From: Alphaproteobacteria bacterium SS10
GTDB taxonomy: Bacteria > Pseudomonadota > Alphaproteobacteria > TMED2
NCBI GenBank assembly: GCA_019192455.1
Contig: JAHCML010000004.1
Coordinates: 1-64,000 of the forward strand
Reading direction: 5' to 3'
DNA length: 64,000 nucleotides
Position numbers and translations under genes: made by a program. The notes under the pieces were generated by a model, which searched no databases, was not told the DNA's origin, and saw nothing but the letters and a program-made list of their open reading frames with translations. Below are positions 20,433 through 26,084 of the stretch, in pieces; the stretch's first letter is position 1, and each line of letters opens with the position of its first letter.

Positions 20433-20565
20433 AGGTTGCCTGCCAACAGAAAGTAAGCACTGCCAGCCACGAAGAAAGGTCAATCTCAGCGAATTGACCG
20501 GTCAGCCGGGTGAAACAATCGGCTATGGCATTGGCACCCACCTTTGGCTTGAGGGCCGAGCACCC

Positions 20566-21519
20566 ATGTCTTTACCCCCAAACGCGCTGGCGATTATTCA
20601 GCATGATAGCGGTATGGCCCATGATACCGGGCCCGGCCATCCAGAGCGAATTGACCGTCTAAATGCGGTTGCAGATGCCCTTGCTGCCCCTCAATTTGCT
20701 GAAGCGGTAAGGATAGAGGCGCCGGCCGCCGACATATCAGTGATCGATCGGGTGCACCTGCCTGGCTATGCCGAGGCGGTACTTGAGGCCGTGCCAGAGG
20801 AAGGCATGGTGCGGGTTGATGGCGATACCGTATTGAGCCAGGGCAGCGGTACGGCCGCCCTGCATGCCGCTGGTGGTGCCGTGCTGGCCGTGGATCAGGT
20901 TCTATCTGGTGCGGTCAGTCGCGCCTTTTTGGCGATGAGGCCACCTGGTCACCATGCGGAACCGGCCGAGTGCATGGGCTTCTGTATCTTTAACAACGTA
21001 GCTGTGGGTGCCGCCCATGCGTTGGAGGCTGGTGGGCTAAACCGGGTCGCCATCGTCGATTTTGATGTCCATCACGGCAATGGCACACAGACCATGGCCG
21101 AGGCCGATCCCCGGATGCTTTACATCTCACTCCATGAGTTTCCGCTGTTTCCCGGCACTGGCCTGCCGCAAGAGCAGGGTGCCCATGGGAACATCATGAA
21201 CATTCCCATTCGTGCCGGATCAGATGGTGAGACCTACCGCCGGGCGTTTGAGCAAGATGTGATCCCCCGACTCACCAAGTTTGAACCCGAACTCCTTTTC
21301 ATCTCCGCCGGATTTGATGCGGATGCGCGTGACCCATTGGCGGGGGTTGAGTTGGGCCCCGCCGATTTCCACTGGATGACTGAAGCGTTGAGCCAGGTGG
21401 CTGACAGCTATGCATCTGGTCGTATCGTCTCTGTCCTCGAGGGGGGGTATGATTTGGATGCGTTGCGGGAAGGGGTTTCCGCCCATTTGGGGGCGCTTTT
21501 GGGACAGGATTTCAGCTAG
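20566..21519 (+). CDS. Histone deacetylase-family hydrolase (acetylpolyamine amidohydrolase-like)
   Basis: A 317-residue Zn-dependent deacetylase of the arginase/HDAC fold. Active-site motifs are RPPGHHAEPAECMGFCIFNNVAVGA (paired catalytic His), VAIVDFDVHHGNGTQ (Zn ligands Asp and His) and ISAGFDADARDPLAG (third Zn ligand Asp), with the late motif VLEGGYDLDAL. Bacterial members remove acyl groups from polyamines or other small amides. The ATG at 20566 has GAGGG upstream; the frame extends to 20494 without family similarity. In many alphaproteobacteria this gene directly precedes xseB; here a 629-residue gene stands between them. Confidence 0.92.
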   Translation: MSLPPNALAIIQHDSGMAHDTGPGHPERIDRLNAVADALAAPQFAEAVRIEAPAADISVIDRVHLPGYAEAVLEAVPEEGMVRVDGDTVLSQGSGTAALHAAGGAVLAVDQVLSGAVSRAFLAMRPPGHHAEPAECMGFCIFNNVAVGAAHALEAGGLNRVAIVDFDVHHGNGTQTMAEADPRMLYISLHEFPLFPGTGLPQEQGAHGNIMNIPIRAGSDGETYRRAFEQDVIPRLTKFEPELLFISAGFDADARDPLAGVELGPADFHWMTEALSQVADSYASGRIVSVLEGGYDLDALREGVSAHLGALLGQDFS

Positions 21520-21682
21520 GCGAAAGACCGTCTGCGAAATGTGTCCGGGGTTTGGCACTTTCTTCCAAATAACCAAGGATGGTGTTTAAGCAATAGTGCG
21601 CGCGATCATGGGGGTTACGCCTACTAGATGCTTGGACAACAAATTTAGTTTTTTGTGCCTTTTGGGGATTGGTTTGCAAAAA

Positions 21683-21727
21683 ATTTTAGCTAAAATCTTC
21701 CCAAAAGTTTCACAATTCATGATTGTG
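21683..21727. promoter_or_regulatory. AT-rich region with two symmetric elements upstream of the LPD7-like gene
   Basis: The perfect 14-bp palindrome ATTTTAGCTAAAAT (21683-21696) is followed by CACAAT-5 nt-ATTGTG (21711-21727). The surrounding 100 bp are much richer in A/T than the neighbours. This looks like a promoter with operators for the 629-residue gene that starts at 21798, but no -35/-10 pair stands out. Confidence 0.4.
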
Positions 21728-21797
21728 CGTTGCATTAGTCATGATGCCATGGTGCTATCGAAAGCAAACGATCATCCGATCGTGGTAGGGGATTAAA

Positions 21798-23687
21798 ATG
21801 AGCAACTTGGGACCCGAAGACGGGGAACAGCCAGAAGCCACCGGTGCAGCACCGAATGATCCGGATGCACGTGTGGCCCAGGAACTCGAGCAGGCGCGCA
21901 TCGCTGCCGCTGAGGAAGATGCAATCGTTCCTGACGCTGATGCTGCTGAACAAGCGTCACCTGAAACGCCGATTGCAAGCATTGCAGCCGACGACACCGA
22001 CCCTGACGCTAGCAGCGCCAATCAGGTCGAGGCTGAGTTTACCGAAGGCCCTGCACCTAAGAAGAACGCAGCCCAAGACGGTCAGCCACAAGAACCAGTT
22101 TTCGACGATCCGTCCCTAGAAGATAAGGTGACGCGGGTTCGCCAGTCCGAACCAGATAATGACGATGCCTCGGTTAAGGCTCAGTACTACCGGGAATCGA
22201 AAAAGTTTCTCGACATCAAGCGTAAAGAGCCTGGCCAGGGCATCCAGCTCGCTGACGAAGACGCAGAGCTGGTCGACAGCGTTCGCCCGGTTGATCCGGA
22301 CTCCCCACGCCTATCCATGAATTTGAAGCGTGGTGGCAGCGTTGAGATCGGTAACAAAACTGCCCGCGCAAACGGTCTTCACACCCATGAGGAGCGTGAC
22401 CTGGCCGCAGCTCAGATCGTTGCAAATGCCCAAGAGCAGGGCATGGCGCGCATCCGGATTAAGGGTAGCGACCCAGAAGCCAAAGCACGCCTTTACTACC
22501 ATGCCCGCGCCGCTGGCCTTGGCACCGTTGGTTTCGTACCACCTGTGCCTGCGAAAGAACGCCGCGCAGAGATCGACGGTATCCGCGCCAAAATGGCCCG
22601 TGACCGTGACTTCTACTATGACCGGAAGGAAGAGGTTCAGCTTGGCGCCGAGATGGAGCCGGGTGTTGATCCAAAACCAGGTCCAGATGATGAACCCCCA
22701 GGTATTGCGCCTGGTGGCGACGATGGTGGTCCGAAGCCTGGTGATGGCGGCGGTACCGGCCTTGCCAAGCGTTTGGATGTTGCGGCCCTGACCGCCGGTG
22801 CCGCAAGTGCACCAGGTGGCTTGCTTGAGGCCATGCAAGAGACCATGCGCGGCGACTCAACTGAGAAAGCTGGCCCTGCAGAGGTTGATCTAGGCATCAA
22901 TCAGATGCAGCAGACCCAAATTGATGCGGCCGCAATCAGCATGGCGAATGCCAAGCTCGATATTGAAGCGATGCCGCTGGGTACCCCTAAGGCATTTGAA
23001 GATGCCGGACGTGCCCGTTTTGAGCAGGCGATGCCAGGCATCGGTGCCAATGTTCATGATCATCTGTTCGGCACCCCGAACGCCGACACTGGCGCTGCAT
23101 TTAAAGACATGCTTGGCCAGGCTGGTGTTGATGTGGAAACCGCGAATATCGACGGCATTGCCGAGCGAATGCGCGGCACCGCGCAGCGCCACATGGAAGA
23201 TGAGCGCAGCTTTGCCAATGGCGCGGCCCCAGATGCCGCTGAGCCCAAGCCAGCTGAGCCAGCCCCAATTGTCGCTGGTCTTATCGGTGAGACCGCCCAA
23301 CCGAAGCCGACAACGGCCGCCTTGGTTGATGCCCTGAACCCAAGCACGGGTAACGGCGTTGATGCCAAACGCGCGATTGAGGTTGTAGCGACCGATCCGA
23401 AGGTCCGTGGCGCTGTTAATCGCGCTGTTGCCGCCTTGCCATTGATCGTCGATGGTGCCGCTGAAGCTGCCAAGACAAACGGTGTTAAGGGGGCCATTGT
23501 CGCAGCAGGTAAGGGTGTCGTTGAAGCCGCCGCTGGTGGTGAAGACGGCCTACATGCTGGTGCTTTGGCTAAGGTTCATGAGAACCGTGCCCAGGCCGTG
23601 ATTGGCGCACCAACGCCTGGTGATGTTATTGCGCTGCCAGGCCCAACGGACAGCAAACCAGGCCGGGATCGCCCCGCTCTGACATAA
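21798..23687 (+). CDS. Large acidic protein with LPD7-like domain, unknown function
   Basis: A 629-residue soluble protein. Residues 1-125 are acidic and Ala/Asp/Glu/Pro-rich, probably disordered. Residues about 172-258 resemble the LPD7 domain of relaxases and polyvalent phage/plasmid proteins: a basic strand (MNLKRGGSVEIGNK), a helix (ERDLAAAQIVANAQEQG), the strand ARIRIKGSDPEAKARLYYHARAAGLGTVGF. Then follow a charged helix (PAKERRAEIDGIRAKMARDRDFYYDRKEE), a Pro/Gly/Asp linker (285-320) and an Ala-rich helical C-terminal half with no recognised motif. It has no cysteine, signal peptide or membrane helix. It splits the usual HDAC-like/xseB neighbourhood and has its own AT-rich upstream region, which suggests an insertion. 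Codon use does not look foreign. The domain call is by eye. Confidence 0.7.
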   Translation: MSNLGPEDGEQPEATGAAPNDPDARVAQELEQARIAAAEEDAIVPDADAAEQASPETPIASIAADDTDPDASSANQVEAEFTEGPAPKKNAAQDGQPQEPVFDDPSLEDKVTRVRQSEPDNDDASVKAQYYRESKKFLDIKRKEPGQGIQLADEDAELVDSVRPVDPDSPRLSMNLKRGGSVEIGNKTARANGLHTHEERDLAAAQIVANAQEQGMARIRIKGSDPEAKARLYYHARAAGLGTVGFVPPVPAKERRAEIDGIRAKMARDRDFYYDRKEEVQLGAEMEPGVDPKPGPDDEPPGIAPGGDDGGPKPGDGGGTGLAKRLDVAALTAGAASAPGGLLEAMQETMRGDSTEKAGPAEVDLGINQMQQTQIDAAAISMANAKLDIEAMPLGTPKAFEDAGRARFEQAMPGIGANVHDHLFGTPNADTGAAFKDMLGQAGVDVETANIDGIAERMRGTAQRHMEDERSFANGAAPDAAEPKPAEPAPIVAGLIGETAQPKPTTAALVDALNPSTGNGVDAKRAIEVVATDPKVRGAVNRAVAALPLIVDGAAEAAKTNGVKGAIVAAGKGVVEAAAGGEDGLHAGALAKVHENRAQAVIGAPTPGDVIALPGPTDSKPGRDRPALT

Positions 23688-23798: not shown

Positions 23799-24059
23799 AT
23801 GTCGAATACCAGCCCAGAAATATCGCCAGAAATTGCCGCCATGTCGTTCGAGGCTGCCCTGGCCGAACTCGAGACCATCGTACGTGGGCTTGAGAGTGGC
23901 TCTGCCAAGCTGGATGAGGCTGTCACCTCGTATGAGCGTGGCGCTGAGTTGAAGCGGCATTGCGAAGAAAAGCTCAAACAGGCGCAGGCGAAGATCGAAC
24001 GCCTGAACATTGCGGCCGATGGCTCTGTTGCCGGGGCTGCCCCGCTGGATAACGACTGA
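23799..24059 (+). CDS. xseB: Exodeoxyribonuclease VII small subunit
   Basis: An 86-residue XseB. The family pattern MSFEAALAELETIVRGLESGSAKLDEAVTSYERGAELKRHCEEKLKQAQAKIERL covers the central helical hairpin. It binds many copies per XseA subunit in the exonuclease that degrades single-stranded DNA. It lies 75 nt upstream of dxs; in many relatives ispA (farnesyl diphosphate synthase) lies between xseB and dxs but is absent here. Confidence 0.95.
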   Translation: MSNTSPEISPEIAAMSFEAALAELETIVRGLESGSAKLDEAVTSYERGAELKRHCEEKLKQAQAKIERLNIAADGSVAGAAPLDND

Positions 24060-24134
24060 CCAGCCCGAATCAAACACCCAACTTAAATCCGTGAGCCGAC
24101 CTGCAGTGAACTGGCTTCCTTAACGCTAGGACAG

Positions 24135-26084
24135 ATGATGACCACTCAATCAGCTTCTAAAACGCCACTGCTCGACCGGGTCGAGGATCTTGAAACGCTG
24201 CGCACGCTCTCCGATGAAGAGCTGAAGCAATATGCTGACGAGCTGCGGACCGAAACCGTCGATGCCGTCTCTGTCACCGGTGGCCACCTCGGTGCGGGCC
24301 TTGGCGTGGTTGAGCTGACCACCGCGATCCATGCTGTGTTCAATACCCCGGCGGATCGTCTGATCTTTGATGTCGGGCACCAATGTTACCCGCACAAAAT
24401 CATGACCGGTCGTCGTGATCGTATCCGAACCCTGCGCCAGGGCGGTGGCCTTAGTGGTTTCACCAAGCGGAGCGAGAGCGAGTTTGACCCATTTGGCGCT
24501 GCCCACAGCTCAACCTCCATCTCCGCTGGTTTGGGCATGGCCGTGGGCCGCGACCTTGGTGACGGCGACAACAACGTGATCTGTGTGATTGGCGACGGTG
24601 CGATGAGTGCCGGCATGGCCTATGAGGCGATGAACAACGCCGGTGCGATGCAGAGCAAGCTGATCGTCATCCTGAACGACAACGACATGTCTATTGCCCC
24701 GCCGGTTGGGGCGATGAGCGCGTATCTCTCACGCCTGCTGTCTTCCAAGCCATATCGGAACTTCCGCCAAAACGTTCTCAACTTCATGGAGAACCTGCCG
24801 CGTCCGCTGAAAAATGCGACCAAGAAGGCTGAGGAATACGCCCGTGGCATGGTCACCGGCGGCACCCTGTTTGAAGAGCTTGGCTTCTTCTATGTCGGCC
24901 CAATTGATGGCCACAATCTGGAGCATCTGCTGCCGGTCTTGCGCAATGTGCGTGATGATCAGGGCGAGGGGCCAATCCTGGTTCATGTGGTCACCCAGAA
25001 GGGCAAGGGCTACACCCCGGCTGAGGAATCCGCCGATAAGATGCACGGCGTGTCCAAGTTTGATGTGGTTACCGGCGCCCAATCTAAGGGCAAGCCAAAC
25101 GCACCTGCCTATACCAAGGTCTTTGCCAACAGCTTGGTCAAAGAAGCTGAGAAGGACGACAAGATCGTCGCCATTTCCGCGGCCATGCCATCCGGCACCG
25201 GCCTTGATGTGTTCGGTAAGGCATTCCCAGACCGCACCTTCGATGTAGGCATTGCCGAGCAGCACGGCGTGACCTTCGCTGCTGGCCTTGCCACCGAGGG
25301 CTACAAGCCGTTTGCCGCGATCTATTCTACCTTCCTTCAGCGTGGTTATGACCAAGTGGTCCACGATGTGGCGATCCAGGGCCTGCCGGTCCGTTTTGCC
25401 ATCGACCGGGCTGGTTTGGTTGGTGCCGATGGCTCCACCCATGCTGGTGCCTTCGACATTGCTTATCTCGGTTGCTTGCCGGGCTTTGTCCTGATGGCGG
25501 CCTCAGATGAGGTTGAGTTGCAGGATATGGTGGCAACGGCGGTGGCGATTGATGATCGCCCCTCCGCCTTCCGCTACCCACGTGGTGAAGCGGTTGGCAT
25601 CGACATGCCTGAAGCTGGCCGGGTCCTAGAGATCGGTAAGGGCAAGATTGTTAAGGAAGGCACCAAGGTGGCGCTGCTGTCCTATGGTGGTCGCTTGCAA
25701 GAATGCCTGAAGGCCGCAGAAGAGCTGGATAGCCGTGGCCTGTCCACGACGGTTGCCGATGCCCGCTTTGCCAAGCCGTTGGATGAGGACCTGATCCGCC
25801 GCCTAGCGAAGGAGCACGAGGTTCTGATCACCATTGAGGAAGGCTCCGTCGGTGGTTTTGGTGCCTTTGTCCTGCACTTCATGGCTGGTGATGGCCTGCT
25901 CGATAAGGGCATGACCATCCGCACCATGACCCTGCCGGATATCTTCCAAGATCAGGATAAACCAGAGCTGCAATACGAGCAGGCCGGCCTTAGCGCCCGC
26001 CACATCGTTGCCAAGGCGCTGGAAGCCCTAGGGGCGGATGAGAGCGTGATTGCGGCGGCCGTGACGGCACCGCAGAGCGCTTAA
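24135..26084 (+). CDS. dxs: 1-deoxy-D-xylulose-5-phosphate synthase
   Basis: A 649-residue TPP enzyme, the first step of the MEP isoprenoid pathway (pyruvate plus glyceraldehyde-3-phosphate to DXP). The TPP motif reads [18 protein letters not shown] and ends [21 protein letters not shown] and [13 protein letters not shown] are early family motifs. The transketolase pyrimidine domain contains [23 protein letters not shown], and the C-terminal domain has EEGSVGGFG. Length and domain order are standard. It is followed after 39 nt by tlyA on the same strand, a common alphaproteobacterial arrangement. Confidence 0.97.

What the first reader, a model, noticed from the sequence alone, without database searches (positions are those of the whole stretch)
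21798..23687. Chromosomal orphan protein with an LPD7-like domain between the HDAC-like gene and xseB
Residues about 172-258 look like the LPD7 domain known from relaxases and from large polyvalent proteins of phages and plasmids. Here it sits in a stand-alone 629-residue protein with disordered acidic and Pro/Gly linkers and no relaxase, toxin or phage gene nearby. The gene interrupts an HDAC-like/xseB order common in alphaproteobacteria and has its own AT-rich control region. It may be a domesticated mobile-element protein with a new cellular job, for example DNA binding, or an anti-phage factor.
Basis: partly seen in the sequence, partly recalled or inferred. Interest (0 to 1): 0.6.

Follow-up and report, generated by a model that had tools for sequence, protein, structure and literature searches.

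The report
Orphan LPD7-like protein, possible T4BSS cargo
A gene found only in this bacterium encodes a mostly disordered protein with one small domain of a kind otherwise known from DNA-transfer proteins, and its control site also occurs at both type IV secretion loci of the same genome, so it may be a protein that machine exports, though this is unproven.

Summary
The 629-aa ORF (21798-23687) is real, has normal codon usage and lies in core chromosome. Residues ~170-270 form an LPD7-like domain: Pfam LPD7 scores only 17.8 bits (cut-off 27), but an independent LPD7 profile built without this protein scores 20.2 bits against at most 8.4 in 5000 shuffles. The protein is an orphan: no relative in 57 class relatives, GTDB contigs, plasmids, phages or viral contigs. 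HDAC and xseB lie within 200 bp in 22 of 29 relatives, so the gene is a lineage-specific insertion. No relaxase domain; no other LPD7 in the genome. New: the genome carries a chromosomal Dot/Icm-type T4BSS. The palindrome AAATTTTANNTAAAWT, 100 bp before the gene, recurs at both T4BSS loci and before several orphan genes (one followed by a patatin phospholipase) and is absent from 400 kb of control chromosome. Best reading: a T4BSS-co-regulated protein, probably a secreted substrate. Domain and motif are shown; co-regulation is suggestive (p about 0.01-0.04); export is inferred. 'Chromosomal LPD7 without a mobile element' is not new: acidic LPD7 proteins sit beside gap-pgk in several small alphaproteobacterial genomes.

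The parts
21798..23687 (+). Orphan gene, 629-aa LPD7-like protein (P0001)
   Evidence: ORF with SD site; coding statistics; no homolog found
21678..21696 (+). AAAAAATTTTAGCTAAAAT; contains the palindromic site AAATTTTAGCTAAAAT (21681-21696), 101 bp before the ATG
   Evidence: 19-bp exact match at G000:C3:1492364-1492382; genome-wide 7 sites with <=2 mismatches, reversed control 1; 0 expected in window shuffles
21768..21783 (+). Second inverted repeat ACGATC-ATCC-GATCGT in the leader
   Evidence: Sequence; only ACGATCN{2,6}GATCGT copy in the window; function unknown
21787..21791 (+). Shine-Dalgarno AGGGG
   Evidence: Sequence
21798..22271 (+). Residues 1-158, acidic disordered N-terminus (pI 4.05, net charge -25)
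22299..22571 (+). Residues 168-258, LPD7-like domain
   Evidence: single-sequence AF2 core pLDDT about 82, strands and helices alternating
22668..22772 (+). Residues 291-325, Gly/Pro/Asp linker
22773..23684 (+). Residues 326-629, Ala-rich, predicted mostly helical at low confidence, Pro/Gly-rich tail
20494..21519 (+). HDAC-like upstream neighbour
   Evidence: PF00850
23799..24059 (+). xseB downstream neighbour
   Evidence: PF02609

Best explanation
The gene encodes a lineage-specific protein that carries an LPD7-like domain between disordered regions and is expressed together with the genome's chromosomal Dot/Icm-type T4BSS under an unknown regulator that binds the palindrome AAATTTTANNTAAAWT. 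Its most likely job is to be a substrate (effector) of that T4BSS. LPD7 occurs in relaxases, which are themselves T4SS cargo, so here it could help docking on the DotL/DotM coupling complex, while the disordered acidic and Pro/Gly segments suit unfolding and export. Shown: the ORF, the LPD7 similarity, the T4BSS, the motif occurrences. Suggestive: co-regulation. Inferred: export and the role of LPD7.
For: LPD7 similarity: an independent HMM gives 20.2 bits against at most 8.4 in 5000 shuffles. Two of the tblastn hits of the domain in other genomes (G073:C34, G002:C128) fall on loci that Pfam LPD7 found independently. T4BSS: DotH PF12293, DotC PF16932, DotD PF16816, DotB (T2SSE) and DotG (TrbI), plus a pilus secretin, at C3:1493-1519k; DotL, DotM PF23127 and a DotA-like protein at C3:697-712k. 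Motif: exact 19-bp match 22 bp before a DsbC/TrbB-like gene at the end of the T4BSS/pilus locus; a one-mismatch site 150 bp before the orphan+DotA genes of the other T4BSS locus; none with <=1 mismatch in 400 kb of control chromosome or elsewhere in the window. Other motif genes are mostly orphans, one followed by a patatin-like phospholipase (E 3e-27), and one RTX protein.
Against: The gene is not linked to the T4BSS loci. No LPD7-like ORF was found within the up to 10 kb held on each side of DotL in 80 other genomes. Of about 10 other DotL-bearing genomes in the class sample only G100 has an LPD7-like protein, while eight genomes without a detected DotL have a non-relaxase one. No Dot/Icm E-block: the last 30 residues hold no Glu. 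Motif statistics are post hoc, about p 0.01-0.04, and AT-rich palindromes favour intergenic DNA. The regulon proteins share no domain. I found no experiment that shows LPD7 acting in docking.
Confidence: 0.38

Rival explanations
1. A domesticated, lineage-specific cytoplasmic protein that uses the LPD7-like domain for a nucleic-acid or protein contact inside the cell, with no link to secretion; the shared palindrome marks only a global AT-rich-site regulator.
For: Orphan and chromosomal; the motif regulon is mixed and includes an RTX protein; acidic LPD7 proteins beside gap-pgk occur in genomes where DotL was not detected.
Against: Both T4BSS loci carry the site while 400 kb of control DNA does not.
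Confidence: 0.35
2. Remnant of a relaxase or large polyvalent protein of a decayed mobile element.
For: LPD7 is found in relaxases of the same class (L032-L034, L044).
Against: Intact 629-aa frame, native codon usage, own control region, no relaxase domain, no mobile-element genes seen in the window, no plasmid or phage relative.
Confidence: 0.1
3. The LPD7 resemblance is chance; the protein is an unrelated orphan.
For: Score below Pfam's cut-off; single-sequence model only moderately confident and without fold matches.
Against: Shuffle test, and coincidence of tblastn hits with true LPD7 loci.
Confidence: 0.12
4. Anti-phage factor.
For: Weak PADLOC AbiEii match, 14.6 bits.
Against: That match lies in the low-complexity N-terminal region; no defence genes seen in the window.
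Confidence: 0.03

Closest known systems
Pfam LPD7 (PF18821), found in the C-terminal part of many relaxases
   Same: Pattern helix - Gly - strand (I-x-[IVL]-x-G-S) - helix - Gly-[LM], plus the N-terminal hairpin, aligned over about 100 residues
   Different: Below the curated cut-off; one-residue insertion in the G-S-D-P-E loop; no relaxase domain
Acidic non-relaxase LPD7 proteins beside gap-pgk in small alphaproteobacterial genomes (G284, G073, G190, G002, G166, G038:C39, G050:C79)
   Same: Chromosomal, LPD7 among acidic or low-complexity stretches
   Different: Different locus; sometimes several copies side by side; DotL not detected in those genomes; only 16-28% identity in the domain
G100:C9 798-aa LPD7-like acidic/Pro-rich protein (L097)
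   Same: Divergent LPD7 (17.1 bits) between acidic Pro-rich stretches, in a genome that has DotL
   Different: 18% identity in the domain; different neighbours
XVIPCD of Xanthomonas T4SS effectors (PF20410)
   Same: Weak local match to the same helix-Gly-strand stretch (E 0.15)
   Different: Far below cut-off (13.1 against 24.9 bits); a lead only

Membership tests
Pfam LPD7 (PF18821) | Score over the curated cut-off (27 bits) | tested here: not met
   14.0 bits full, 17.8 bits trimmed
Pfam LPD7 (PF18821) | Homology over the domain beyond chance | tested here: met
   20.2 bits against at most 8.4 in 5000 shuffles; overlap of tblastn hits with true LPD7 loci
Conjugative relaxase | Relaxase catalytic domain | tested here: not met
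   No relaxase family at E<=10
Large polyvalent protein of phage or plasmid | Several enzyme domains and mobile-element context | tested here: not met
   One domain only; core-chromosome neighbours by eye
T4BSS (Dot/Icm) effector | Genome carries a T4BSS | tested here: met
   DotB/C/D/G/H/L/M genes by profile or similarity, DotA and DotO by size and position
T4BSS (Dot/Icm) effector | Co-regulation with the T4BSS | tested here: inconclusive
   Shared palindrome at both loci, p about 0.01-0.04
T4BSS (Dot/Icm) effector | C-terminal Glu-rich E-block signal (not universal) | tested here: not met
   No Glu in the last 30 residues
T4BSS (Dot/Icm) effector | DotL-dependent translocation | not testable with these tools
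   Needs an experiment
Anti-phage system | Match to a known defence family or a defence neighbourhood | tested here: not met
   Only 14.6 bits to AbiEii in a low-complexity region

The most novel reading that the evidence does not exclude
LPD7 is a portable docking module for T4SS cargo: relaxases carry it for DNA transfer, and in Alphaproteobacteria it has been re-used in stand-alone protein effectors. P0001 belongs to a T4BSS effector regulon (palindrome AAATTTTANNTAAAWT) of a deep alphaproteobacterial lineage with no described effectors.
Probability: 0.2. Interest if true: 0.75.

Novelty: new variant of a known kind. Interest (0 to 1): 0.5.

Why it matters
I found no assigned function for LPD7, and no solved relative by sequence in the PDB. 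A stand-alone LPD7-like protein that shares a control site with a chromosomal T4BSS would give a simple system to test whether the domain is a T4SS export or docking module. The palindrome also gives a short list of candidate effectors in a lineage where I know of none.

Tried and rejected
tblastn of the domain in 385 genomes: the hits I read, apart from those that coincide with Pfam LPD7 loci, were ordinary proteins such as threonine synthase, or non-coding frames. I first misread the G073 hit because I took the wrong strand of its locus. Structure searches of the single-sequence model gave nothing at E<0.001; the C-terminal model is unreliable (pLDDT 48). PHROGs, NCBIfam and PADLOC gave nothing usable. 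The viral-contig alignment scans failed or were empty. LPD7 near DotL in 80 genomes: none. Shared domains among the regulon proteins: none. The 425- to 1393-bp HDAC-xseB gaps of four relatives show no LPD7-like gene by eye. Full-text searches for LPD7 found no relevant paper.

Full report
OBSERVATION. The 629-aa frame at 21798-23687 is present, has a good Shine-Dalgarno site, and its codon usage resembles its neighbours'. HDAC, xseB and dxs flank it. The window is core chromosome by eye (ribosomal proteins, RNA polymerase subunits, aroC, fabI, efp), with no mobile-element gene seen. The genome (3.19 Mb, 16 contigs) has no close relatives in the held set; all 57 'relatives' share only the class.

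DOMAIN. Pfam LPD7 is the only family that hits residues 192-256, below its cut-off. Three further lines make the relation credible. First, an HMM built from 15 LPD7 domains of Alphaproteobacteria found by the Pfam model, ours excluded, scores our domain 20.2 bits against a maximum of 8.4 in 5000 shuffles, with the alignment running from residue 170 to 270. Second, tblastn with our domain alone over 385 genomes gave mostly chance hits, but G073:C34 and G002:C128 are loci that the Pfam model found independently; G050:C79 was later found by a profile that includes ours, which is partly circular. Third, the single-sequence AF2 model has alternating strands and helices with core pLDDT about 82, although no fold match reached E 0.001. 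I therefore call it LPD7-like, not a Pfam LPD7 member.

DISTRIBUTION. No relative of the whole protein was found in GTDB contigs (close relatives only), 57 class relatives, plasmids, phages, viral contigs or elsewhere in its own genome. No Pfam LPD7 match exists in the genome. Of 29 HDAC loci examined in other genomes, 26 have xseB within the locus; in 22 the two genes are within 200 bp and in four the gap is larger (425-1393 bp), three of those filled by unrelated genes. The gene is thus a lineage-specific insertion.

OTHER LPD7 PROTEINS. In 289 class genomes the Pfam model finds two kinds: relaxases, and acidic or low-complexity proteins without a recognised relaxase domain, one of them with ankyrin repeats. 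The second kind lies beside gap-pgk in G284, G073, G190, G002, G166, G050:C79 and G038:C39, sometimes in several copies. A stand-alone chromosomal LPD7 protein is therefore not unique to this genome.

T4BSS. The coupling-protein family hit one ORF of the genome. Its surroundings hold DotL, DotM (PF23127, E 1e-45) and a 969-aa DotA-like protein. A second locus at C3:1493-1519k holds DotH, DotG, DotD, DotC and DotB genes, an ORF of DotO size, and a pilus secretin. DotL-like proteins at 41-48% identity occur in many uncultured Alphaproteobacteria, among them Micavibrio.

CONTROL SITE. The 231-bp region upstream of the gene matches one other place in the genome over 19 exact bases (E 0.014). That place is 22 bp before a DsbC/TrbB-like gene at the end of the T4BSS/pilus locus. 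The 14-bp palindrome core occurs 7 times in the genome with up to 2 mismatches, the reversed control once. One of the 7 is inside an RTX gene; the others lie upstream of genes: P0001, the DsbC-like gene, a 239-aa orphan followed by a patatin-like phospholipase, a 186-aa orphan, a 304/395-aa orphan pair, and an RTX protein. 'Orphan' here means no Pfam match. A scoring matrix built without the T4BSS sites finds its best hit of the DotL/DotA region at C3:702117, upstream of the orphan+DotA genes, and another site before a 175-aa orphan. The consensus with up to 1 mismatch is absent from 400 kb of control chromosome. My rough estimate from these counts is p about 0.01-0.04 for both T4BSS loci carrying it; the test was post hoc.

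MECHANISM. Relaxases are T4SS cargo, and their mapped translocation signals are mostly internal (review PMC10025392). With a T4BSS in the genome and the shared site, the simplest joint explanation is that P0001 is a T4BSS substrate. LPD7 as a docking module is my inference; the paper that defined the LPDs leaves most of their functions open (PMC5512222). Against this stand the lack of genomic linkage, the rarity of LPD7 in other DotL genomes and the missing E-block.

VERDICT. Observation confirmed with the caveat on the Pfam cut-off. Interpretation partly supported. Interest 0.5: an orphan with a rare domain is of moderate interest, and the T4BSS-linked control site makes it testable.

Noticed in passing
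G000:C3:697000-712500 and C3:1493000-1519500 (own genome, L050-L051, L171-L172): Chromosomal Dot/Icm-type T4BSS split over two loci, one joined to thin-pilus-like genes (secretin, PilQ/PilR-like).
   Followed up: partly
G000:C3:907712, C3:168715, C3:1108337, C4:245336, C5:210613, C3:702117, C3:1492367: Palindrome AAATTTTANNTAAAWT-like sites before orphan genes, a patatin-like phospholipase gene, an RTX gene and T4BSS genes: a possible regulon.
   Followed up: partly
L054, L055, L056, L058-L060, L157, L159: Acidic non-relaxase LPD7 proteins, sometimes several in a row, beside gap-pgk in small alphaproteobacterial genomes; one has ankyrin repeats.
   Followed up: partly
L282 and other Micavibrio loci: DotL-like coupling ATPases in many Micavibrio MAGs, whereas the 2011 M. 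aeruginosavorus ARL-13 genome paper (PMC3189940) reports no evidence of a type IV secretion system.
   Followed up: no
window 24059-24135: No gene between xseB and dxs, while many relatives have about 1 kb there, probably ispA.
   Followed up: no
window 21768-21783: Perfect inverted repeat ACGATC-ATCC-GATCGT just before the SD site of the gene.
   Followed up: no
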